Source: a virus
Strand: one strand, 5' to 3'
Virus record (IMG/VR): IMGVR_UViG_3300009610_000020
Span: 1-45,202 of that record
Length of the DNA: 45,202 bases
Position numbers and translations under genes: made by a program. Shown in pieces: positions 14,423-30,359 of the stretch. The number at the start of each line of letters is the position of its first letter. Position 1 is the stretch's first letter. The notes beneath the pieces were generated by a model. It did no database searches. It was given only the letters and a program-made list of their open reading frames with translations, and had not been told where the DNA came from.

Positions 14423-14695
14423 CAATGAGTGTGACAGAGCCGAAAACCTCAACTGGCCACACGGTCAGCGGCAGAGTAGGCGAACCACTCTAGGTGACTA
14501 GTATTCTCTCTCTTTCCCTGCAAGGGGGATGAGCAGACAGCGAGATCGACTCACCAGTGTGAATCAGTTGTCACCTCTCAACGATGTGGCATAGGAGAAT
14601 CCTGGTGGGAGTCGCAAGACTCAAGAGGCATGAATCACTGTCCGTTCTTCCTCCGGACCACTCAAACGTGTGTGTTGAGTGGTTGGGGAGAGATG

Positions 14696-14887
14696 ATGAA
14701 GTACACAATCAACTGGTCCAAGGGTGGCTACAGCCACACGGTGTACAGTGACAGCTGCAACGGTGCTGTGCATGCTGCTGAGGCCATTTCCAAGGACACT
14801 CGTGTCGTCGCAGTCAACACTGAGACGGGCGCTGAGCGCCTGTACGTTGACGGCCTGATGCAGTGGACGGACAGTGATTTCCTGTGA
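14696..14887 (+). CDS. First early gene, small unknown protein
   Basis: 63 residues starting MKYTINWSKGGYSHTVYS. I chose the second of two adjacent ATG codons because GGGGAG lies at the best distance. A longer frame from 14630 has no ribosome site. The sequence alternates polar and hydrophobic residues, as in a small beta-rich protein, and has no recognised domain. An eight-pair hairpin (CCACTCAA with TTGAGTGG, 14658-14682) sits directly before the ribosome site, the pattern seen before the other early genes. The stop overlaps the next start. Confidence 0.7.
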   Translation: MKYTINWSKGGYSHTVYSDSCNGAVHAAEAISKDTRVVAVNTETGAERLYVDGLMQWTDSDFL

Positions 14888-15204
14888 CTATCGTGTATTA
14901 CGGTGGACGTGAACAGCATCTCGGCAGTGAGCAACTGTACCGGCATGTGAAGGCTATCGACGCCTACAACAGGACCGGCAAGGGTGTGATGGACATCACT
15001 GATGATGTCGCACAGACCATCGCTGCGATGTGGCACTCGCCCAATGGCGAGTCAACCTGGCTGAGCACCCGTGGCATTGTCACGGAAGCCATGACCATCG
15101 GTGACTTCTGCACTGAGAAGGAATACAGTGAGCTGTCCACTGAGGACACGCTGCTGATTGACTATCTTCAGAGCTACATCGAGAACAAGCAGGAGCGGGC
15201 ATGA
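14884..15204 (+). CDS. Early protein of unknown function, 106 residues
   Basis: Starts at a GTG overlapping the previous stop (GTGA). Sequence MTIVYYGGREQHLGSEQLYR, then helical and acidic toward the end (TEDTLLIDYLQSYIENKQ). No metal-binding or catalytic motif was recognised. It is coupled on both sides: its stop overlaps the ATG of the next gene. Early position suggests a host-takeover protein, but nothing in the sequence shows a target. A perfect hairpin, ACTCGCC-CAAT-GGCGAGT (15035-15052), lies within it. Confidence 0.7.
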   Translation: MTIVYYGGREQHLGSEQLYRHVKAIDAYNRTGKGVMDITDDVAQTIAAMWHSPNGESTWLSTRGIVTEAMTIGDFCTEKEYSELSTEDTLLIDYLQSYIENKQERA

Positions 15205-15413
15205 GCAGGACTGTACTGTTTGTGCATCACTGCGACCGGTGTGGGGTGGAGTTCGACCCCAATCCCCACTGGAACACCCCCATGATCGCTTCGCTGAGTT
15301 ACATGGTGAAGCGCAACGGCAGTGGCACCAAGATTCATGGTGAAGAGAAGGAATTCTGTCAGGACTGCTCTGGCAAGTTCCTCAAGTTCATGAAGAGTAA
15401 GCTTGAAGTGTAG
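15201..15413 (+). CDS. Small early zinc-binding protein
   Basis: 70 residues. HHCDRCGVEFDPNPHWN near residue 9 and EFCQDCSGKFLKFM near 51 give two CxxC pairs, a likely zinc ribbon. The basic C-terminus (FMKSKLEV) could touch nucleic acid. It overlaps the previous gene as ATGA. It ends in TAG, which is the first codon of a 58-base repeat that leads into the next gene. Confidence 0.75.
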   Translation: MSRTVLFVHHCDRCGVEFDPNPHWNTPMIASLSYMVKRNGSGTKIHGEEKEFCQDCSGKFLKFMKSKLEV

Positions 15414-15468
15414 GTGAACAGCATGGTTCACACAATGTGTGAGCTGTGTGGTCTACCTAGACCAATCA
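15411..15468 (+). repeat. 58-base leader repeat, copy 1, with tandem hairpins
   Basis: Identical to 16673-16730. It contains the hairpins GTGAAC-AGCATG-GTTCAC (15414-15431), ACAC-AAT-GTGT, and GGTCT-ACCT-AGACC (15450-15463), then leads to GGGAGAGAG and the ATG at 15483. The stop codon TAG of the upstream gene forms its first three bases in both copies although the two upstream genes differ. It therefore behaves as a mobile or recombined leader cassette. Confidence 0.85.
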
Positions 15469-15482
15469 CAAGGGAGAGAGAA

Positions 15483-15908
15483 ATGAACAAGGACATTGCT
15501 GGCCGTTGGGTTGCCGCTCTCAGGAGCGGCGAATACCAGCAGGGTACCACCGAGCTGGAAAACATCTCGTTCGTGGACGGCAAGAGCACGTTCTGCTGTC
15601 TCGGCGTGCTGTCGCACATCGCCTACAGTGAGGGTGTGTGCGATCGGTCGGAAACCGATCGCGGCTACGCTCGCTACACCGACACTTTCGAGGAGTGGCA
15701 GTCATCCATCCTGCCCGTGCCCGTTCGCATCTGGTCGGGTATGCATGACCAGTACGGCACCCTGATCGAGGGTGACAGTCGATCGCTCACCGCCATGAAC
15801 GATGGTGGTGAAGAGTGGGACAAGGAGGCGCACGAGTACGTCATGCTCGGACCCCTGTCCTTCGCTGAGATCGCCGACTATATCGAGGCGAACTGGGAAC
15901 AGCTGTAG
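15483..15908 (+). CDS. Early protein with FCCLGVL motif, paralogue 1 of 3
   Basis: 141 residues from the ATG preceded by GGGAGAGAG. The open frame back to 15414 runs through the leader repeat and is not used here. MNKDIAGRWVAALRSGEYQQ, then FCCLGVLSHIA near residue 37, and a C-terminal LSFAEIADYIEANW. This arrangement is shared with 17582-18004 and the truncated copy at 16731. It belongs to a family that I have seen often in phages but whose function I do not know. The Cys pair could bind metal. An eight- to nine-pair intragenic hairpin lies at 15640-15662. Confidence 0.75.
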   Translation: MNKDIAGRWVAALRSGEYQQGTTELENISFVDGKSTFCCLGVLSHIAYSEGVCDRSETDRGYARYTDTFEEWQSSILPVPVRIWSGMHDQYGTLIEGDSRSLTAMNDGGEEWDKEAHEYVMLGPLSFAEIADYIEANWEQL

Positions 15909-15926
15909 TACATGACCACCTATGGT

Positions 15927-16027
15927 GCTCAGCCTAAGCTGAGCATTGTAGCGGCATCATGTGCCGGACGATGAAGGCTGTAGGTTTGTTCTCAAACCTA
16001 CTCCAATTGCTTTCAGGTAAAGCAATT
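15927..16027 (+). promoter_or_regulatory. Four-hairpin early leader
   Basis: Four perfect hairpins in a row: GCTCAG/CTGAGC (15927-15944), CGGCA/TGCCG (15952-15966), GTAGGTTTG-TTCT-CAAACCTAC (15980-16001, nine pairs) and AATTGCTTT-CAGGT-AAAGCAATT (16005-16027, nine pairs). The last ends two bases before GGGAGAGAG, the ribosome site of the gene at 16040. The sequence differs from the other early leaders, yet the layout of stacked stems then ribosome site is the same. Confidence 0.7.
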
Positions 16028-16039
16028 AGGGAGAGAGAA

Positions 16040-16276
16040 ATGGCCGAAGGGTATATCCCCATCAAGGCAGAGGATCTTCACCCCGGATACGTGGTGCTGA
16101 TTCCTCCGGCCAGTGGTAGGCACCGCACTCGCGGTGCCATTGATGGGTCATCTCACATGACTGTTCGTGAGGTGACCATCGATACCGCTGGGCTGGGGTA
16201 TGTCGAGGTCACGTTCACTGACTGTTCCATGGTCGTGCGACGTGACCTCAGGGTGAACGTGGTGGTCCACCGGTGA
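16040..16276 (+). CDS. Small early protein, beta-rich, unknown function
   Basis: 78 residues from the ATG after GGGAGAGAGAA. MAEGYIPIKAEDLHPGYVVL, then alternating hydrophobic strands (MTVREVTIDTAG, YVEVTFTDCSMVV, LRVNVVVHR) that suggest a small barrel. No catalytic motif recognised. Its stop overlaps the GTG of the next gene. The longer frame from 15959 would run through the leader hairpins and is rejected. Confidence 0.7.
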   Translation: MAEGYIPIKAEDLHPGYVVLIPPASGRHRTRGAIDGSSHMTVREVTIDTAGLGYVEVTFTDCSMVVRRDLRVNVVVHR

Positions 16277-16503
16277 TAACACGTTCGATGGTCACCCTGG
16301 GCAAGCGATGCAACAACGACAAGCGTTGGGTCACCATGAAGGTTGGTGGTCAACGTATTGGTGTCATCGTAAAGTCCAGGAAAAGAAGCACTGAGTATCT
16401 GTGGCGTGAACTGGGCTTCGACACAAAGTGGAGCCGTGCCAGCGGCGACAGTGAGGCGCTTGCACGCCTCCTTCTCCGAATCAATGGGGGACACAGTGGA
16501 TGA
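16273..16503 (+). CDS. Small basic early protein, unknown function
   Basis: 76 residues from a GTG overlapping the previous stop. Rich in Lys and Arg in the first 50 residues (TLGKRCNNDKRWVTMKVGG, KSRKRSTEYLWRELGF), so nucleic-acid binding is possible. The last third is helical (SEALARLLLRING). No recognised domain. It overlaps the next gene by a few bases. Confidence 0.6.
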   Translation: MITRSMVTLGKRCNNDKRWVTMKVGGQRIGVIVKSRKRSTEYLWRELGFDTKWSRASGDSEALARLLLRINGGHSG

Positions 16504-16675
16504 GTTCATCAAGGTTGTTTCTGACGACCTTGAGAGCGTTGAGGCAGCAGAGAAGAAACTCAAGCTGTTGCGTGCTATCCTCATTCGTGAGGGCAAGGAT
16601 GAGATCTTCGAACTGAAGATCCAGCCCAACGACTTCAAGCGAGGCAAGCACTTGATCGCGCTGTACAAGCGCTAG
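16496..16675 (+). CDS. Small helical early protein, unknown function
   Basis: About 59 residues if it starts at the GTG at 16496, which has GGGGGA upstream. An ATG at 16484 without a ribosome site is the alternative. VDEFIKVVSDDLESVEAAEKK and then KLKLLRAILIREGKDEIF form a likely coiled coil or helical hairpin, followed by a basic end (FKRGKHLIALYKR). The stop TAG is the first codon of the second 58-base repeat. Confidence 0.6.
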   Translation: MDEFIKVVSDDLESVEAAEKKLKLLRAILIREGKDEIFELKIQPNDFKRGKHLIALYKR

Positions 16676-16730
16676 GTGAACAGCATGGTTCACACAATGT
16701 GTGAGCTGTGTGGTCTACCTAGACCAATCA
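16673..16730 (+). repeat. 58-base leader repeat, copy 2, joined to a gene fragment
   Basis: Exact copy of 15411-15468, with the same hairpins. In copy 1 the repeat leads to GGGAGAGAG and a start codon. Here it ends abruptly at 16730 and runs straight into the middle of a paralogous gene, so ribosome site and start are missing. That junction shows where a deletion took place. Confidence 0.85.
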
Positions 16731-17015
16731 GGTTTCTGCTGCCTCGGCGTGCTGTCGCACATGGCCATGCAGGAAGGTGTGTGCGAGCGTCGTGTGCTGG
16801 CTAACGACTGGGAAGCATCGTACGGCAACGAGGGTGAGGAAAGCCGCACTGGCCTCATTCCGCTGAGTGTCCAGACGTGGTCTGGACTCAAGAGCGACGA
16901 GGGTGTATTCATGCACCCTGACGGGGATCCCGGGAGCCTGGCCAGCCTGAACGACTACGGCAGCTCGTTCGAGTACATCGCTGACATGATCGAGGAATTC
17001 TGGGAGAGTCTGTAA
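16731..17015 (+). pseudogene. 5'-truncated copy of the FCCLGVL early gene, paralogue 2 of 3
   Basis: Starts in mid-gene at GFCCLGVLSHMAMQEGV and continues to the normal end (FEYIADMIEEFWESL). Compared with 15483-15908 and 17582-18004 it lacks about the first 40-50 codons and the ribosome site. The frame is open upstream into the repeat to a GTG at 16701 (MSCVVYLDQSGFCC), but no ribosome site precedes it. The rest has no stop codon or frameshift, so the deletion is recent or the fragment is still made. Confidence 0.75.
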
Positions 17016-17030
17016 AACCCAATGCATGAG

Positions 17031-17080
17031 TATGGTGCAGGGCCTTGAGCCCTGCGCTGTATCCTTACATTGGTAAGGAT
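17031..17080 (+). promoter_or_regulatory. Intergenic tandem-hairpin element A
   Basis: Follows an ATGCATGAGTATGGT motif. Stem 1 is GCAGGGC-CTTGA-GCCCTGC (17037-17055). Stem 2 is ATCCTTAC-ATTG-GTAAGGAT (17061-17080). The same layout recurs after the next genes (18026, 18658, 19407) with changed but still paired stems. No T-run follows stem 1, so it is not a classical terminator. It could be an RNase cleavage site or a protein-binding RNA element between cistrons. Confidence 0.75.
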
Positions 17081-17084
17081 AACT

Positions 17085-17158
17085 AAGGGAGAGAGCTGTG
17101 GAGTTTGCTCCGCAAACCCACGGCCATTCCTTTCATTGAAAGGAATTGGAATGACTGA
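17085..17158 (+). promoter_or_regulatory. Leader cassette with upstream ORF and hidden ribosome site, copy 1
   Basis: About 74 bases identical to 18711-18784. It holds GGGAGAGAG, a GTG start of a 13-codon ORF, and a hairpin GTTTGC-TCC-GCAAAC extended by GTGG/CCAC. A second hairpin, TTCCTTTC-ATT-GAAAGGAA, has a 3' arm containing the AAAGGAA ribosome site for the ATG at 17151. The upstream ORF stops (TGA) at the loop of that hairpin, so a ribosome ending there would open it. This is a plausible translational switch. Confidence 0.7.
17098..17139 (+). CDS. Leader peptide (upstream ORF), copy 1
   Basis: GTG start, 13 residues MEFAPQTHGHSFH, then TGA. The distance from GGGAG to this GTG is the same as from GGGAG to the true ATG of the neighbouring early genes (for example 15483 and 17582), which supports real initiation here. 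An identical peptide is encoded at 18724-18765 in front of an unrelated gene. The peptide itself may matter less than the ribosome's passage through the hairpin. Confidence 0.5.
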   Translation: MEFAPQTHGHSFH

Positions 17159-17495
17159 CATCGACGTGGCAGCTCTGCGCGCTCAGATTGAGGAGGAGTT
17201 GCGTGCCAAGATCGAGCAGGAGTTCGAGGACCGTGCATCTCAGGCGATGTCCATAACGGACATCTGCACTGAGCGTAACAGCGTGGTGACGACCGTTCAG
17301 AAGATCCTTGACGCTGCTGGCGTCAAGTCCATCAACGGGAACAGTCGCTTCAAGCTGTACGACCGTGGCGAGGTCATGCGTGCCATGATTCACAAGGACC
17401 GTCACCTGCTGGCCTACTACGGTCTGCTTCAGCAGGTTCAGGAGAAGAACGGTCTGCCTGTCACCCCGGACCCCGTCAAGGAGCCCGCTAAGTAG
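17151..17495 (+). CDS. Probable DNA-binding early protein
   Basis: 114 residues from the ATG after AAAGGAATTGGA. The N-terminus is a charged helix (AALRAQIEEELRAKIEQEFE). The middle, SITDICTERNSVVTTVQKIL followed by INGNSRFKLYDRGEVMRAM, looks like a helix-turn-helix with a wing. A Pro-rich tail ends it. It may be an early regulator. A longer frame from 17070 would read through the leader hairpins and is rejected. Confidence 0.65.
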   Translation: MTDIDVAALRAQIEEELRAKIEQEFEDRASQAMSITDICTERNSVVTTVQKILDAAGVKSINGNSRFKLYDRGEVMRAMIHKDRHLLAYYGLLQQVQEKNGLPVTPDPVKEPAK

Positions 17496-17515
17496 AACTG
17501 AAGCGTGAGAGTGAT

Positions 17516-17565
17516 CGAGCTGCATTGGCAGCTCGGTTGCTTCCTCATTTCAGTGTGATCTGAGG
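17516..17565 (+). promoter_or_regulatory. Tandem-hairpin early leader before paralogue 3
   Basis: Stem 1 is CGAGCTGC-ATTG-GCAGCTCG (17516-17535, eight perfect pairs). Stem 2 is CCTCA with TGAGG (17543-17565). GGGAGAGAG and the ATG at 17582 follow. The stem sequences do not resemble the other elements, but order and spacing do, including the ATTG loop shared with 17061-17080. Confidence 0.6.
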
Positions 17566-17581
17566 AGACTGGGAGAGAGAA

Positions 17582-18004
17582 ATGAACAAAGACATTGCTG
17601 ACCGTTGGGTTGCCGCTCTCAGGAGCGGTAAGTATGCCCAGACGCGTGGCTGCCTGGAGGTGGTCAAGGAGGAGGATGACACCCCTGTCGGTTTCTGCTG
17701 CCTCGGCGTGCTGTCGTGCCTTGCCGTCGAAGGGGGCATTGTTGAGCGGACAATCGATGAGCGTGGAGTCGCCGCAAGCTTCCACCCCAAGAACAGCGAC
17801 CCGTACTATGGGTCGATCTCCTTCCTGCCTGGTGTCGTTCGAGACTGGGCAGGAATCAATAGCGATGACGGCAGGTTCGGCGGGGTGAATGACAGCCTCA
17901 CCAGAATGAACGATGGTGAGAAAGAGCTTGACGGTACCATCGTCAACCAGAAGTCCTTCGCTGAGATCGCCGACTTCATCGAGCAGAACTACATGAGTCT
18001 GTAA
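17582..18004 (+). CDS. Early protein with FCCLGVL motif, paralogue 3 of 3
   Basis: 140 residues, MNKDIADRWVAALRSGKYAQ, FCCLGVLSCLAVEGG near residue 38, and C-terminal KSFAEIADFIEQNY. Closely related to 15483-15908, so the family was amplified in tandem. Two Cys in the central motif are conserved in all three copies. Preceded by GGGAGAGAGAA. Function unknown. The intragenic hairpin GCCGCTC-TCAG-GAGCGG seen at 15513 is kept here. Confidence 0.75.
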   Translation: MNKDIADRWVAALRSGKYAQTRGCLEVVKEEDDTPVGFCCLGVLSCLAVEGGIVERTIDERGVAASFHPKNSDPYYGSISFLPGVVRDWAGINSDDGRFGGVNDSLTRMNDGEKELDGTIVNQKSFAEIADFIEQNYMSL

Positions 18005-18025
18005 AACCCAATGCATGAGTATGGT

Positions 18026-18068
18026 GCAGGGCTCAAGGCCCTGCGCTGTATCCTTACATTGGTAAGGA
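18026..18068 (+). promoter_or_regulatory. Intergenic tandem-hairpin element B
   Basis: Stem 1 GCAGGGC-TCAAG-GCCCTGC (18026-18044) and stem 2 TCCTTAC-ATTG-GTAAGGA (18051-18068), after the same ATGCATGAGTATGGT motif as element A. The loop of stem 1 is changed relative to element A while the stem is kept. It precedes AAGGGAGAGAG and the ATG at 18088. Confidence 0.75.
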
Positions 18069-18087
18069 AGAACAAAGGGAGAGAGAA

Positions 18088-18643
18088 ATGAACATAGAGC
18101 GGATCGAGAAGGCTGCTGCTTTCCTGGAGCGGAGACTATACCTCAGCCTCCAACATCCTGACTGGTGAGCCTGGCTGGGACTACAGCGCCTTCAATGGCT
18201 ACAAAAAGGAGTGGGAGAAGTATCTCATCTCCGAGAAGGACATCTGGGAGAGCAGCACTGGCCGTCAGGTTGTCATCGATCATGAGCTTGTGATGGAGGG
18301 CAAAGCCTACACTGTTTTCCATGCACTGAACACTAGCGCTGCTAGCATGTCCACCAAGGTCGCATTCCTGGGTATCTACAGCAAGCTTCCGCCGAAGCCC
18401 AAGTACATCGACGGACGGCTGTACATCAGTGAGGACGGTAAGACTGTCCTCATGTACGCTGAGAAGGCTGGGAACAGCAATCACCCCGGCTTCCACCGTC
18501 TCAACAAGGACGGTAAGGAGTACCTGGGGTTGGTTGGTCACGGCAGCGTACCCTACTATGAGGAGGAGTACGGCAAGCTGACCGAAATCAAGGCCAGCAC
18601 CTACGGTGCCAGTGACAAGCTGGTGCAAGCTTCATTCGTCTGA
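18088..18643 (+). CDS. Early gene read in two frames (+1 frameshift), unknown function
   Basis: The ATG after GGGAGAGAGAA opens MNIERIEKAAAFLERR but stops after 26 codons. The +1 frame is open from about 18098 without any start codon until 18290 and reads like protein (GDYTSASNILTGEPGWDYS, then KKEWEKYLISEKDIWE). The natural product would be ...AAFLE joined to GDYTSASN... with the shift near 18127-18131. Options are a programmed +1 shift, an inactivating one-base insertion, or a sequencing error. Conventional calling from 18290 would lose the first half. The downstream part is beta-rich (LYISEDGKTVLMYAE). Confidence 0.6.
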
Positions 18644-18657
18644 TGCATGAGTATGGT

Positions 18658-18703
18658 GCAGGGCTTAAGGCCCTGCGCTGTATCCTTACATCAGAGAGAT
18701 GTA
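18658..18703 (+). promoter_or_regulatory. Intergenic tandem-hairpin element C
   Basis: Stem 1 GCAGGGC-TTAAG-GCCCTGC (18658-18676). Stem 2 is here a different helix, TACATC-AGAGA-GATGTA (18687-18703), in the position of ATCCTTAC/GTAAGGAT in elements A and B. It is followed by the second leader cassette. Confidence 0.75.
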
Positions 18704-18710
18704 TGGAATC

Positions 18711-18784
18711 AAGGGAGAGAGCTGTGGAGTTTGCTCCGCAAACCCACGGCCATTCCTTTCATTGAAAGGAATTGGAATGACTGA
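18711..18784 (+). promoter_or_regulatory. Leader cassette with upstream ORF and hidden ribosome site, copy 2
   Basis: Identical to 17085-17158 over about 74 bases, ending inside the first codons of the gene (ATGACTGA). Here it precedes a gene unrelated to the one behind copy 1, so the cassette is exchanged as a unit and is under constraint or recent copying. Upstream ORF 18724-18765, switch hairpin about 18752-18770, gene start 18777. Confidence 0.7.
18724..18765 (+). CDS. Leader peptide (upstream ORF), copy 2
   Basis: Same 13-residue peptide MEFAPQTHGHSFH as at 17098, starting at GTG after GGGAGAGAGCT and ending at a TGA in the loop region of the hairpin that contains the AAAGGAA ribosome site. 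Confidence 0.5.
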   Translation: MEFAPQTHGHSFH

Positions 18785-19391
18785 GTTCAACCGGCCCAAT
18801 GTCCTGCGCGTGCTAGCTGACGTGCTGGAGGAGGAGGCTGGAAACGACGCTGCGAAGGTTGCCGGTTTCAACATGGCCTCCTTTGTGAAGACCCCTCAGG
18901 CTGGCTCATTCCGAGAGGATGAGACTGAGATGGTCCTGGAGTCGGGCATGAGCCCGACCCTCTGTGGTACTCAGCTGTGTGTGGCTGGGTTCGCCACGCT
19001 GGCGCGGGGCTGGAAGTTCAAGTTCACCAAGCGCACTCCATACATGTATGGCGACTACTTTCTCACCAACACCACTTACATCAACCCTCAGGGGGTTGAG
19101 CAGAATGGTGAGCCGGACTGGGAGCTTGAGGGACGCCTGCACATGGGCATCTCCTCAACCAGCGCTGCCTATCTCTTCTATGCCACATTCGACGATGGCG
19201 AGACTGCCATCGAGATGCTGGAGGAGATGGTCAGGCTGAACCGTGACCTCACCCATGAGGAGATCTCAGAAATCAACATCGCCGGTCGCAAGCGTGCCGA
19301 TCCTAGCTATGGGGAGCCGTACGACTACCCTGACGAGGATGAGGATGAGTATGAGGACAGCGATTACTGCTGCTCCTACTGCAATCCCTGA
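18777..19391 (+). CDS. Early protein with CGTQLCVAGFATL motif, paralogue 1 of 2
   Basis: 204 residues from the ATG after AAAGGAATTGGA. LRVLADVLEEE near the start, CGTQLCVAGFATLA near residue 62, DDGETAIEMLEEMV near 140, and an acidic tail rich in Asp, Glu and Tyr that ends in CCSYCNP. The order of motifs is shared with 19476-20201. The paired Cys of the central motif and the Cys-rich end could bind metal. Family and function unknown. It may be an inhibitor that mimics nucleic acid with its acidic tail, which is only a guess. Confidence 0.7.
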   Translation: MTEFNRPNVLRVLADVLEEEAGNDAAKVAGFNMASFVKTPQAGSFREDETEMVLESGMSPTLCGTQLCVAGFATLARGWKFKFTKRTPYMYGDYFLTNTTYINPQGVEQNGEPDWELEGRLHMGISSTSAAYLFYATFDDGETAIEMLEEMVRLNRDLTHEEISEINIAGRKRADPSYGEPYDYPDEDEDEYEDSDYCCSYCNP

Positions 19392-19406
19392 TGCATGAGC
19401 ATGGTT

Positions 19407-19452
19407 CAGCGCCCTTAGGCGCTGGGCTGTGTCCCTACATCAGAGAGATGTA
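19407..19452 (+). promoter_or_regulatory. Intergenic tandem-hairpin element D (compensatory changes)
   Basis: Stem 1 is CAGCGCC-CTTA-GGCGCTG (19407-19424). Compared with GCAGGGC/GCCCTGC of elements A-C both arms have changed together, which is direct covariation. Stem 2 TACATC-AGAGA-GATGTA (19436-19452) is as in element C. The same ATGCATGAGCATGGT motif precedes it. It is followed by GGGAGAGAG and ATG 19476. Confidence 0.8.
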
Positions 19453-19475
19453 CGGAAGAGATACTGGGAGAGAGA

Positions 19476-20201
19476 ATGACTGACGCTCAAGAGGGTATCG
19501 TCACCTTCAAGCCGACTCCTCAGGTTGCCCGTCTGCGTGTTCTGGCGGACATCCTTGAGGAGAAGGAGAAGGCCGAAACGCTCAAGATCAAGTCTGCCTT
19601 CTACATGGGCGACTGGATGTCTGTGCCGCTGTGGTACGGTCCTGACAATGGGAGCGATGACAAGACCGTTTTCGAGGGTGAGGAGTTCATCCTCAAGACT
19701 GCTTCTCAGGCTTCAGAGTGTGGTACTCAGCTGTGTGTGGCTGGGTTTGCCACCCTGGAGGCTGGCTACAGCGTCAAGTACGCCAAGGCTAAGCAGGAGA
19801 TGTATGGTGGGCACATTTCCCACTACATCAGTGCGACATACTTCGACCCGAAGGGTGAAGCCCTTCCCAAGGGCGTTCGGCCTTCCTGGGAGCTGATCGG
19901 TGCCGAGGTGCTTGGCCTGAACCCGTATCACGCTCACGTGCTGTTCTTCAGCACGGAGGACGATGGCGAGCAGGCCATCGAAATCCTCACCAAGCTTGCG
20001 CTTGGCGTCGAGATCACTGACGATGAGTGGCTTCAGTACAAGCGGAACCACAACATCGACAACATGTACGAGGGGTACGCGGAGGCCGACTGGAGTGGTC
20101 CGTACGCTGGTGACCGTTATGCTTGTCAGCGGGACTGGGAGGAGAACGGTGACGAGGAGGACTGGGAGGAGAGGTGCAACTGCGGTTGCATGGATGACTA
20201 G
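19476..20201 (+). CDS. Early protein with CGTQLCVAGFATL motif, paralogue 2 of 2
   Basis: 241 residues. RLRVLADILEEKEKAETLK near the start, ECGTQLCVAGFATLEAG near residue 82, EDDGEQAIEILTKLALG near 160, and an acidic, aromatic tail ending ERCNCGCMDD. Related to 18777-19391 over the whole length but well diverged. ATG follows GGGAGAGAG. The Cys-rich C-terminus recurs in both, so metal binding is possible. Confidence 0.7.
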   Translation: MTDAQEGIVTFKPTPQVARLRVLADILEEKEKAETLKIKSAFYMGDWMSVPLWYGPDNGSDDKTVFEGEEFILKTASQASECGTQLCVAGFATLEAGYSVKYAKAKQEMYGGHISHYISATYFDPKGEALPKGVRPSWELIGAEVLGLNPYHAHVLFFSTEDDGEQAIEILTKLALGVEITDDEWLQYKRNHNIDNMYEGYAEADWSGPYAGDRYACQRDWEENGDEEDWEERCNCGCMDD

Positions 20202-20213
20202 TAGGTAAAAGTT

Positions 20214-20233
20214 CCAGCGTCTTCGGACGCTGG
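20214..20233 (+). terminator. UUCG-capped hairpin, probable terminator
   Basis: CCAGCGTC-TTCG-GACGCTGG, eight perfect pairs closed by the very stable UUCG loop, 13 bases after the stop of the gene at 19476-20201. The following GCTTTAAGT is only weakly T-rich. It ends the block of repeated early cistrons and comes directly before a structured leader. Confidence 0.6.
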
Positions 20234-20241
20234 GCTTTAAG

Positions 20242-20352
20242 TCAGGCTGTCTAATGCAATCCGGCTGGTCAAGAGAAGGTTCTCTCCCGTCTCTTGACTC
20301 AGTTCGCTCAGATTGAGCGAACGTCTCCCCGGGGAGTAAAGGGACAGCCTGG
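20242..20352 (+). ncRNA. Multibranched structured leader RNA
   Basis: An outer helix of nine perfect pairs (CAGGCTGTC 20243-20251 with GACAGCCTG 20343-20351, extendable by G-U pairs) encloses three hairpins. These are GTCAAGAGA/TCTCTTGAC (20268-20298), GTTCGCTCA-GAT-TGAGCGAAC (20302-20322) and the palindrome CTCCCCGGGGAG (20325-20336). Twenty-five bases after the outer helix closes comes AAAGGAGG and the ATG at 20378. It therefore has the size and place of a riboswitch-like or protein-binding leader. I recognise no known RNA family. Confidence 0.6.
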
Positions 20353-20377
20353 CCTATGGCTCAGCGAAAGGAGGATA

Positions 20378-20842
20378 ATGGCAGTACCTGTTAAAGAGAT
20401 TAACCTGGTGGTTAAGGTACTGAACGATCCCGAGTTCGACGGTTGGACGGAGAAGGATCTAGCCACCAAAATCGTCGAGGCGATTAACCAAGAGAGAGAG
20501 AACACTAAACGATTCGTCGTTGTCGCTTCGCTGAAGTGGCCCCACGACGATGACCACCACATGTGGGCTGCTGGTCCGTTTAACACGGAACGACAAGCCG
20601 AACAGGTTGGTGAAAAGTTCTCTCATGACCCTTATACGAAACGTGGCGAGGGCAGGTGGAAAGTCGTTCCGATCCTTTCTCCGGCTGTCAATCCGGCACG
20701 TACAGCCTGGGACACCATTCGTCCTGCTGTCAGCGGTGAGCCCTGCTGTTCCCTGCATCACGGCTGGATCAAGGATGACCTTGACCGGTGGACATGGCTC
20801 CGGCCCCCAGGAGGGGCCGATCACTGGAGAGAAGGTTGGTAA
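20378..20842 (+). CDS. Early protein behind structured leader, unknown function
   Basis: 154 residues from the ATG preceded by AAAGGAGG, the strongest ribosome site of the region. MAVPVKEINLVVKVLN, then a region with WPHDDDHHMWAAGPF near residue 50 that resembles a small alpha/beta fold (FVVVASLKWP, TERQAEQVGEKF). The C-terminal half is Pro- and Trp-rich. The His/Asp cluster may bind metal. The longer frame from 20294 would run through the structured leader and is rejected. Stop overlaps the next ATG (TAATG). Confidence 0.7.
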   Translation: MAVPVKEINLVVKVLNDPEFDGWTEKDLATKIVEAINQERENTKRFVVVASLKWPHDDDHHMWAAGPFNTERQAEQVGEKFSHDPYTKRGEGRWKVVPILSPAVNPARTAWDTIRPAVSGEPCCSLHHGWIKDDLDRWTWLRPPGGADHWREGW

Positions 20843-21618: not shown

Positions 21619-21833
21619 TGGTCGAACCCCGAGTGAAGCTCAGGTTCGCGATCGACCATGGAAACTGGGCTGCTAACCTGCTGGACAAGTGTGACTACGA
21701 GATTGTCTACCTTGACCCAAACCTGTACTCGTACGATCAGCGATGGGTTGTACGCGTCTTTCGTAAAGGTAATGAGTGGCTGGAGCTTTGGTGTGATGAA
21801 GACTTCAGCAACAAGACCCTGATCGAGCTTTGA
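21618..21833 (+). CDS. Small early protein, unknown function
   Basis: 71 residues MVEPRVKLRFAIDHGNWAAN, then YEIVYLDPNLYSYDQRW and WLELWCDEDF. Acidic and aromatic, with a mixed alpha/beta pattern. It is the last gene of the first plus-strand block and ends eight bases before a strong bidirectional terminator. Confidence 0.65.
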   Translation: MVEPRVKLRFAIDHGNWAANLLDKCDYEIVYLDPNLYSYDQRWVVRVFRKGNEWLELWCDEDFSNKTLIEL

Positions 21834-21840
21834 TAGTGGA

Positions 21841-21860
21841 GCAGGGGCTAAGGCCCCTGC
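21841..21860. terminator. Bidirectional terminator between converging genes
   Basis: GCAGGGGC-TAAG-GCCCCTGC, eight perfect pairs, between the plus gene ending at 21833 and the minus gene ending at 21885. No long T-run on either side, but the position between convergent genes supports termination. Confidence 0.65.
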
Positions 21861-21884
21861 CTCGCTACCTCACTTCAATGAGGA

Positions 21885-22283
21885 CTATGCCCATTCAAAT
21901 CCCTTGCCATACACCCAGTAGATGTCAGCATCTAGCTGATCCCCCTGGCTGTCAGCCATGGTGAACACCTTCACCTTCCGGGTGCTGTCGTAGGCGGAAT
22001 AGGTTGACAGGGGATTCGTCACAAGGTGAACCCTGTTGTCCTTCATCTTGTATGTCAGCTCAAGCAGGACGCGACGGACACGATCATCAAAGTCAGCCTT
22101 GGCCTTGACGGCAAGAGCCTTCTTGTCCCTCTCTCCCTGCTTGCGTCGCTCCTCGATAGTGGCAGCCAACTGGTCTGCCTGATCCTGACGCTTGCGACGT
22201 GCAGCACGGACACGCTGACGGATAGCGTGAGCCTCCGCAAGCTGCTTGGTTTCCTCTTCAGTAAAGTAGACCTGTTCGGTCAT
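21885..22283 (-). CDS. Coiled-coil protein beside sigma-like factor, unknown function
   Basis: 132 residues. Residues 1-70 form a highly charged helix (EEETKQLAEAHAIRQRVRA, then RRKRQDQADQLAATIEERR). The second half is beta-like (RVHLVTNPLSTYSAYD, KVFTMADSQGD, IYWVYGKGFEWA). GAAGGA lies seven bases before ATG. The stop of the sigma-like gene is three bases upstream, so they are co-transcribed. Confidence 0.7.
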   Translation of the reverse strand: MTEQVYFTEEETKQLAEAHAIRQRVRAARRKRQDQADQLAATIEERRKQGERDKKALAVKAKADFDDRVRRVLLELTYKMKDNRVHLVTNPLSTYSAYDSTRKVKVFTMADSQGDQLDADIYWVYGKGFEWA

Positions 22284-29451: not shown

Positions 29452-29802
29452 TTGAGCCGAGCTAAGGTGAAGGGCACCGAGGCAGAGACTGACATTGTCA
29501 ACTTCCTGATCGAAGAGGGATTCGAGTTCGCCGAGAGGCGAACCACCCAGGGCAAGAATGATCGTGGGGACATCAATGTCAGTCCTGATGTGGTGATCGA
29601 GGTCAAGAACCAGAAGACCATGACACTGGCTGCCTGGCTTGATGAAGCCATCAAGGAGTCGGAGACGGCAAATGCTTGGCTTGGTGTAACCTGGCACAAG
29701 CGCCCAAGGCGCGGGCATCCCCGCGACTGGTATGTTACGATGGATGGTGCACTGTTCACGGCGGTGCTTCAGATGCTGAAGGAAGACGGAAGGATTCGAT
29801 GA
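29452..29802 (+). CDS. Hjc-like Holliday junction resolvase (PD-(D/E)XK)
   Basis: 116 residues if begun at the TTG at 29452, which has GAGG at the right distance. A GTG at 29440 is the alternative. Catalytic pattern: Glu10 (GTEAETDIV), Asp40 (RGDINV), Glu50-Val-Lys52 (IEVKNQK). C-terminal GVTWHKRPRRGHPRDWYVTM matches the actinophage resolvase-like family. It would cut branched DNA from replication or recombination before packaging. Its stop overlaps the RNA ligase start. Confidence 0.8.
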   Translation: MSRAKVKGTEAETDIVNFLIEEGFEFAERRTTQGKNDRGDINVSPDVVIEVKNQKTMTLAAWLDEAIKESETANAWLGVTWHKRPRRGHPRDWYVTMDGALFTAVLQMLKEDGRIR

Positions 29803-30359
29803 CCATTCAGTTTGAGGGTTGGCCCAAGACAACCCGCTTCAAGGATGTTGTGTACACCGAGAAGATCGATGGCACTAATGCAGCAATCGTCATTGATATT
29901 GATGGTGACGAATTCGGTGCGCAGTCTCGCAAGCGAATGATCACTCCCGACAACGACAACTACGGTTTTGCTGGCTGGGCGTACAAGAACCAGATCGAAT
30001 TGTCTGATCTCTTTGGACATGGTCGGTTCTTCGGGGAATGGTGGGGTAAGGGAATCAACCGTGGCTACGGTATTGACGACCGTCGTTTCTCAGTGTTCAA
30101 CACTGGCCGGTGGGCTGCCGACACTGGCAGCATGGACCCTATCGAGATTGGTGGAGTCCTGGTTGGCCCAGTTCCAGTGCTGGATGTCCACACGCTGGAC
30201 TTCGACCTGATCGACCATCTGATGCAGGATCTGAGGGATGATGGCTCCAAGGCCGCCCCTGGCTTCATGAAGCCTGAAGGTCTCTGTGTCTATGACACCC
30301 AGGCTGGTCGTGTCAAGAAGGTCACCTTCGAGTTCTCGAACGGAAAGTGGGACAAGTGA
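29799..30359 (+). CDS. RNA ligase (Rnl2-like nucleotidyltransferase)
   Basis: 186 residues from the ATG overlapping the resolvase stop. Nucleotidyltransferase motifs: EKIDGTNAAI with the AMP-accepting Lys22 (motif I), FFGEWWGKGINRGY near 75 (motif III), KPEGLCVY near 155 (motif IV) and VKKVTFE near 172 (motif V). Short length and motif forms fit RNA ligases better than DNA ligases. It may reseal tRNAs cut by host anticodon nucleases, which suits a phage carrying its own tRNAs. No polynucleotide kinase is visible. Confidence 0.8.
   Translation: MTIQFEGWPKTTRFKDVVYTEKIDGTNAAIVIDIDGDEFGAQSRKRMITPDNDNYGFAGWAYKNQIELSDLFGHGRFFGEWWGKGINRGYGIDDRRFSVFNTGRWAADTGSMDPIEIGGVLVGPVPVLDVHTLDFDLIDHLMQDLRDDGSKAAPGFMKPEGLCVYDTQAGRVKKVTFEFSNGKWDK

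What the first reader, a model, noticed from the sequence alone, without database searches (positions are those of the whole stretch)
15909..19475. Repeated, covarying tandem-hairpin elements between early genes
After successive early genes (17031-17080, 18026-18068, 18658-18703, 19407-19452) the same layout recurs: ATGCATGAG[T/C]ATGGT, stem 1, a CTGT[A/G]TCC linker, stem 2, then GGGAGAGAG and a start codon. Stem 1 changes from GCAGGGC/GCCCTGC to CAGCGCC/GGCGCTG with both arms altered together, and stem 2 changes from ATCCTTAC/GTAAGGAT to TACATC/GATGTA. Leaders at 15411, 15927 and 17516 have different sequences but the same two-or-more-stems-then-ribosome-site plan. There are no T-runs, so these are not plain terminators. 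They may be RNase III-type processing sites that give each cistron its own mRNA, or binding sites for a phage RNA-binding protein.
Basis: partly seen in the sequence, partly recalled or inferred. Interest (0 to 1): 0.78.

Follow-up and report, generated by a model that had tools for sequence, protein, structure and literature searches.

The report
Phage mRNA-cutting hairpins interchangeable with ribozymes
Between nearly all early genes of this Streptomyces-phage relative sits a conserved, switch-like RNA hairpin that, in close relatives, is replaced by a self-cutting hammerhead ribozyme, which suggests that these hairpins are places where one long viral message is cut into single-gene messages.

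Summary
The repeated elements are real, and larger than described. The window is a Beephvirinae-like podovirus (relatives of Streptomyces phages Immanuel3, Manuel and FlowerPower). Relatives support the helix strongly (15 of 23 pairs with changes on both sides in class A). A second class (UGACCA...CGGCAUCA; window copy at 15908) has the same plan. Covariance models place 116 of 117 elements just after an upstream ORF and 112 of 117 before a ribosome site. In close relatives the same slots hold type II hammerhead ribozymes (all seven in L007), and one pair of phages has a ribozyme/hairpin swap between the same two genes. The slot therefore most likely exists for endonucleolytic cutting into single-gene mRNAs, as at T7 early RNase III sites. 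Whether host RNase III cuts the hairpins or they cut themselves is untested. No Rfam family matches them.

The parts
17019..17080 (+). Class A element, copy 1: P1 17019-17026/17066-17073, P2 17030-17043/17049-17062, alternative P3 17061-17068/17073-17080
   Evidence: alignment A1 and pair counts; class A model R1 74.1 bits
18008..18068 (+). Class A element, copy 2: P1 18008-18015/18055-18062, P2 18019-18032/18038-18051, P3 18051-18057/18062-18068
   Evidence: R1 75.3 bits
18640..18703 (+). Class A element, copy 3: P1 18640-18647/18687-18694, P2 18651-18664/18670-18683, P3 18687-18692/18698-18703
   Evidence: R1 69.7 bits
19388..19452 (+). Class A element, copy 4: P1 19388-19395/19436-19443, P2 19399-19412/19419-19432, P3 19436-19441/19447-19452
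   Evidence: R1 76.8 bits
17494..17563 (+).
   Evidence: R1 49.7 bits, E 1.1e-11, not among the sequences the model was built from
15908..15973 (+).
   Evidence: R2 55 bits, E 4e-11 (a member of its alignment A2)
15411..15470 (+). Leader of gene 15483 with the same plan (TAGGT/ACCTA lower stem, TTCACAC/GTGTGAG upper stem, GGTCT/AGACC alternative)
   Evidence: sequence and fold; a similar leader in L005 6845-6914 scores 46.7 bits with R1; no model hit for this copy itself
16676..16733 (+). Exact duplicate of the 15411 leader, before a 5'-truncated paralogue
   Evidence: 58 of 58 identical
21819..21888 (+). Weaker class A-like element at the end of the early gene block, with no + strand early gene after it
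   Evidence: R1 30.5 bits, E 1e-5; sequence
17087..17095 (+). GGGAGAGAG ribosome-site motif; further copies at 15472, 16029, 17571, 18077, 18713 and 19466
   Evidence: recurs in homologous early regions of relatives

Best explanation
Each element is an intercistronic mRNA-cutting site of the phage's early polycistronic transcript. As the transcript emerges, the strand at the upstream stop codon (P1a) pairs across P2 with P1b and makes a ~25-bp imperfect hairpin with a fixed weak point (core: U·Y, G-C, A·C, G·U in class A; CC/GG with a CA bulge and A·C in class C). An endonuclease, most likely host RNase III, cuts at or near that core. The upstream mRNA would keep P2 as a 3'-terminal hairpin. 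On the downstream piece the freed strand refolds into P3, a 5'-terminal hairpin just ahead of GGGAGAGAG and the next gene, which would release the products and could shield the 5' end from RNase J. In relatives the same job is done by type II hammerhead ribozymes, which cut between the stem III and stem I hairpins. Shown by computation: structure, covariation, position, strand, P1/P3 exclusivity, ribozyme-for-hairpin exchange. Inferred: that cutting happens, the cut position, RNase III as agent, end protection.
For: Helix: 91.9% of cells paired, 15 of 23 pairs with double changes, covariation 0.621 vs 0.191 shuffled (class A); 94.7% and 0.590 vs 0.170 (class C). RNA sense: conserved U·G (14/14) and G·U (13/14) pairs. 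Placement: 116/117 elements follow an upstream ORF end, 112/117 precede an SD and ORF, on the early strand. P3: 14/14 and 30/30 elements; -8.84 vs -3.38 and -7.66 vs -2.74 kcal/mol with the tail shuffled. Slot function: type II hammerheads in seven L007 slots; 15 distinct copies with 100% pairing and covariation 0.684; L009/L011 swap between the same genes, flanking proteins 95% and 82% identical; L007 uses hammerheads before homologues of window genes 15483, 17151, 18777/19476 and 18131. Precedent: clustered type II hammerheads in prophages, proposed to make single-gene mRNAs and active in vitro and in E. coli (PMC3088659); T7 R1.1 with a 4/5 internal loop (PMC6121014; T7 folds); S. [quoted passage not shown]
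Against: No transcript ends or cleavage data. RNase III sites need little sequence conservation, yet class C keeps UGACCA/GGCAUCA and class A keeps UGAG/CC almost unchanged. The TGA of UGACCA is the upstream stop codon in 23 of 40 cases but not in the rest, and class C members were first collected by that motif, so its invariance is partly by selection. T7 sites show no obvious P3 (by eye). The end-of-operon copy (21819) has no downstream gene. The exact two-sided swap rests on one clean pair plus one looser pair.
Confidence: 0.55

Rival explanations
1. The hairpins are themselves self-cleaving ribozymes of one or more undescribed classes: the conserved core is the active site, and they were exchanged for hammerheads because both cut without protein.
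For: Same slot as hammerheads and a direct swap; cores far more conserved than the stems (A15, C53, G14-C54 invariant in class A; UGACCA/GGCAUCA in class C); a P1/P3 exchange would make cutting irreversible.
Against: One imperfect hairpin is a small scaffold for a ribozyme; no match to any Rfam ribozyme family; several sequence classes would each need to be a ribozyme; RNase III already explains a hairpin of this shape.
Confidence: 0.17
2. The elements are not cut. They are binding sites for a phage or host RNA-binding protein, or a switch read by the ribosome terminating at the upstream stop codon, that tunes translation or stability of the next cistron.
For: P1a lies at the upstream stop codon, the two folds are near-isoenergetic in the window copies, and the conserved cores could be protein contacts.
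Against: The ribosome site GGGAGAGAG lies outside both folds; a pure binding site would not be expected to be exchangeable with a self-cleaving ribozyme; no candidate RNA-binding protein was found.
Confidence: 0.15
3. Stabilising hairpins or Rho-dependent terminators: the hairpins mark or protect 3' ends made by termination, and downstream genes use their own promoters.
For: A copy at the end of the operon without a downstream gene (21819); strong P2 stems.
Against: No U-run; no promoter-like sites within 14-22 kb, all five found lie at 13.1-13.9 kb, although the scan covers only sigma-70 types; hammerheads in the same slots imply read-through RNA.
Confidence: 0.08
4. Recombination linkers: short repeats conserved because they help early genes to be shuffled; the structure is incidental.
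For: Identical or near-identical leaders around paralogous genes; the 15411 leader is duplicated at 16676 before a truncated paralogue.
Against: Compensatory changes with diverged sequence cannot be explained by sequence identity for recombination, and a hammerhead in the slot destroys the identity.
Confidence: 0.03

Closest known systems
T7 early-region RNase III processing sites (R0.3, R0.5, R1, R1.1, R1.3)
   Same: One imperfect hairpin (lower stem, internal loop, upper stem) between early cistrons just ahead of the next ribosome site; T7 leaders of genes 0.3, 0.5 and 1.3 fold the same way here; R1.1 has a 4/5 internal loop (PMC6121014).
   Different: Conserved core sequences, lower stem tied to the stop codon, an alternative P3 hairpin exclusive with P1, and natural replacement by hammerheads. 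RNase III cutting not tested.
Type II hammerhead ribozymes in phages and prophages (Rfam RF02276; PMC3088659)
   Same: Same slot, same position relative to stop codon and ribosome site; hairpins on both sides of the cut; repeated along one early operon.
   Different: The window elements lack the hammerhead core (CUGANGA, GAAA, GUC) and its three-way junction. Only relatives carry true hammerheads.
S. coelicolor rpsO-pnp intercistronic hairpin cut by RNase III/AbsB (PMC10126417)
   Same: Streptomyces intercistronic hairpin with an internal loop at which RNase III cuts.
   Different: A single host element, no repeated array, no alternative hairpin mentioned in the passages read.
Cluster K mycobacteriophage start-associated sequences, SAS/ESAS (PMC3203893)
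   Same: Repeated ribosome-site-like motif next to start codons of non-structural genes, about half with imperfect 17-bp inverted repeats upstream.
   Different: Sequence GGGATAGGAGCCC; the inverted repeats follow a sequence consensus and are not described as covarying RNA; no hammerhead exchange in the passages read.

Membership tests
T7-type RNase III processing site | Lies between cistrons of an early operon, ahead of the next ribosome site | tested here: met
   116/117 after an ORF end, 112/117 before SD and ORF
T7-type RNase III processing site | Imperfect hairpin of about two helical turns with an internal loop or mismatch | tested here: met
   25-bp helix with conserved A·C and U·Y mismatches; bulge and A·C in class C
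T7-type RNase III processing site | Cut by RNase III in vivo or in vitro | not testable with these tools
   no biochemical or RNA-seq data
Hammerhead ribozyme, type II | Core CUGANGA / GAAA / GUC around a three-way junction, in the window elements | tested here: not met
   no Rfam match in window 14600-20400; no core motif by eye
Hammerhead ribozyme, type II | Same core in the slots of relatives | tested here: met
   RF02276 at 26.7-34.6 bits in L007, below the gathering score of 37; core bases kept and all 17 pairs formed in 15 copies
Hammerhead ribozyme, type II | Self-cleavage of the copies in relatives | not testable with these tools
   not assayed; other phage type II hammerheads are active (PMC3088659)
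Intrinsic terminator | G+C-rich hairpin followed by a U-run | tested here: not met
   no terminator-like + strand site at the elements
Ribosome-site-sequestering leader or riboswitch | Ribosome site paired in one of two alternative folds | tested here: not met
   GGGAGAGAG lies outside P1, P2 and P3 in the copies inspected; no Rfam riboswitch
Cluster K SAS/ESAS | 13-bp GGGATAGGAGCCC at start codons | tested here: not met
   motif here is GGGAGAGAG
New self-cleaving ribozyme class | Protein-free self-cleavage | not testable with these tools
   not assayed

The most novel reading that the evidence does not exclude
Class A and class C hairpins are new families of small self-cleaving ribozyme built on one imperfect hairpin, with a P1/P3 exchange that makes cutting irreversible, and evolutionarily interchangeable with type II hammerheads at the same sites in one phage group.
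Probability: 0.15. Interest if true: 0.93.

Novelty: new variant of a known kind. Interest (0 to 1): 0.7.

Why it matters
It ties an undescribed, covarying RNA family in cultured Streptomyces phages to hammerhead ribozymes at the same sites. This is a natural exchange experiment on what phage hammerheads are for, a question left open when type II hammerheads were found beside phage genes in 2011 (PMC3088659). Cultured phages and hosts exist (Manuel on S. lividans, Immanuel3 on S. griseus), and an rnc-null S. coelicolor has been made (PMC10126417), so both the cutting and its agent can be tested. If the hairpins cut themselves, they would be a new ribozyme class.

Tried and rejected
Plain terminators: no U-run at the elements. 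Rfam families: none at gathering score in the window apart from tRNAs, none in nine relatives; relaxed searches gave only weak, chance-like matches outside the hammerheads of L007 and L363. DNA similarity of the early region to phage records: none, so relatives were reached through terL. Exact search for the class A motif in IMG/VR: none. Gene 17151 as a query for relatives: none. A loose SD pattern scan was unspecific. A first duplex-energy test of P1 with wide flanks had a high background (-16.3 vs -12.4 kcal/mol) and was replaced by alignment-based counts. I first took the tails of the hammerheads as P3-like refolding hairpins, but the known loop I/tail pseudoknot of type II hammerheads (PMC3088659) explains them as well, so this is not claimed. 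Seven class C pattern hits in contigs with little or no similarity to this phage group do not fold into the element and are chance. The class C model found nothing in three host genomes, which is uninformative without a positive control. Recombination linkers as the primary function: rejected on covariation.
Full report
WHAT THE WINDOW IS. The window is a whole IMG/VR virus record of 45,202 bases. Its terminase is 60-80% identical to that of 29 Streptomyces phage records of the Immanuel3/Manuel/FlowerPower group (Beephvirinae; FlowerPower is in actinobacteriophage cluster BF), and up to 92% identical to metagenome contigs. Early genes run rightward from about 14.7 to 21.8 kb. Sigma-K-like and metallophosphoesterase genes (minus strand) and replication genes follow.

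CHECK OF THE OBSERVATION. GGGAGAGAG occurs seven times on the early strand, always at a leader, although the motif with one mismatch is no commoner in the window than expected by chance. The same motif recurs four to eight times in the early regions of several relatives. The description needs the corrections given under the observation check; the main ones are that a lower stem (P1) was missed and that stem 2 competes with it.

ANATOMY, CLASS A. Fourteen elements (four from the window) align with one helix in a single register: eight pairs of P1, a core (U·Y, G-C, A·C, G·U) and P2. Of 322 cells, 91.9% are paired; 15 of 23 pairs show changes on both sides; the covariation score is 0.621 against 0.191 in shuffles and at most 0.138 when the partner strand is slid. 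The A and the C of the mismatch, the G-C before it and a U·G pair in P2 never vary. G·U-type pairs conserved on this strand would be A·C on the other, so selection acts on the RNA of the early strand. A covariance model finds further copies, including 17494-17563 in the window (E 1e-11) and a weaker one at the end of the early gene block, 21819-21888 (E 1e-5).

ANATOMY, CLASS C. Thirty-three elements, including window 15908-15971, share UGACCA ... GGCAUCA flanked by variable P1 and P2. Counts: 94.7% paired, covariation 0.590 against 0.170. In the middle of P2 there is a defined mismatch, G·G or U·U in 24 of 31. The UGA is the upstream stop codon in 23 of 40. These sequences were first collected with that motif, so its invariance is partly imposed; the pairing statistics are not. 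The model finds up to nine copies in one contig, all in early orientation at E below 1e-3.

THE SWITCH. Downstream of P2 every class A (14/14) and class C (30/30) sequence can form P3, whose arm or loop generally includes the 3' strand of P1. Its energy with the real tail is -8.84 (A) and -7.66 (C) kcal/mol against -3.38 and -2.74 with shuffled tails. Tails swapped between class C sequences do nearly as well (-6.43), because the tail (GCCG) is itself conserved in that class. In the window copies the long hairpin and the P2+P3 form differ by about 0-2 kcal/mol in predicted energy. The long hairpin is complete before P3 can be, so it should form first during transcription (inference).

POSITION. 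Of 117 model hits at E of 1e-3 or below on the early strand, 116 begin at the end of an upstream ORF and 112 are followed within 90 bases by a ribosome site and an ORF. Cultured phages Immanuel3, FlowerPower, Manuel, WRightOn, Stella, Kumquat, Abafar and JXY1 carry hairpin leaders of this kind, many of them model hits.

THE HAMMERHEADS. In L007 (terminase 88% identical to the window) all seven GGGAGAGAG slots are preceded by a type II hammerhead: the Rfam model gives 26.7-34.6 bits, below its gathering score of 37, with E from 2e-4 to 0.024. All core bases are present. Fifteen distinct copies from six loci (L007, L009, L012, L013, L014, L081) pair 100% with a covariation score of 0.684. L009 and L011 have a hammerhead and a hairpin, respectively, between the same two genes (flanking proteins 95% and 82% identical), and even share the CAGCGCTTCGGCGCTG hairpin. 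L007 uses hammerheads before homologues of window genes 15483, 17151, 18777/19476 and 18131. A pattern scan shows such hammerheads are common in viral contigs generally, whereas class C is confined to this phage group once chance hits are removed.

HOW IT MOST LIKELY WORKS. Hammerheads do one known thing: they cut. Clustered type II hammerheads in prophages were proposed to cut long transcripts into single-gene mRNAs, and one triple set self-cleaves in vitro and in E. coli (PMC3088659). Elements that take their place at the same stop-codon/ribosome-site slot most likely also mark a cut. The hairpin form matches T7 early RNase III sites (R1.1 with a 4/5 internal loop, PMC6121014). Streptomyces RNase III cuts beside an internal loop in its own rpsO-pnp intercistronic hairpin (PMC10126417). 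A cut at the core would leave P2 at the 3' end of the upstream mRNA and let P3 form at the 5' end of the downstream mRNA, the same geometry as a hammerhead cut between stems III and I. RNase J prefers 5'-monophosphate ends, which RNase III makes (PMC12096830), so a 5' hairpin would be useful. Shown: structure, covariation, placement, competition, exchange. Inferred: the cut, its position, RNase III, protection.

LIMITS. No transcript data exist here. Self-cleavage is not excluded; the conserved cores make it a serious rival (0.17). The two-sided exchange rests on one clean pair and one looser pair. Other hairpin classes in the same slots (for example L011 5820, L025 5614, L014 8404) were recognised by eye only and not modelled.

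NOVELTY. No Rfam family matches, and no description turned up in the papers searched, which exclude most subscription journals. The kind of function (intercistronic processing) is known; the RNA family, its P1/P3 exchange and its interchange with hammerheads appear new.

Noticed in passing
window 17087-17158 and 18713-18784: After GGGAGAGAG both leaders carry an identical 59-base stretch with a 13-codon GTG uORF (VEFAPQTHGHSFH) whose stop lies in the loop of a hairpin that also holds the likely ribosome site of the next gene: looks like leader-peptide or translational-coupling control.
   Followed up: partly
window 16676-17015: Exact 58-base duplicate of the 15411 leader joined to a 5'-truncated paralogue of genes 15483/17582, a likely recombination scar.
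   Followed up: partly
window 18088-18643: Early gene apparently interrupted by a frameshift: the frame from the start at 18088 ends at 18168, while the frame homologous to L007 runs from about 18131.
   Followed up: partly
window 20200-20380: Very stable multi-hairpin RNA (z = -6.8) between gene 19476 and the next gene, which starts at about 20378; weak partial similarity in L005.
   Followed up: partly
window 29676-30359: RNA ligase gene (phrog_548) in a phage with tRNA genes and multiple presumed RNA cleavage sites; role unknown.
   Followed up: no
L363 (Streptomyces iakyrus contig) and L362 (Phycicoccus jejuensis contig): Three type II hammerhead pattern matches with nearly the same spacing in contigs of two genera; L363 also has a ctRNA hit below gathering score, suggesting a shared mobile element.
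   Followed up: no
L207 9982-10015 (phage Manuel): Weak CRISPR-DR29 match (26 bits, gathering 39, E 0.027) in an early leader hairpin; probably chance.
   Followed up: no
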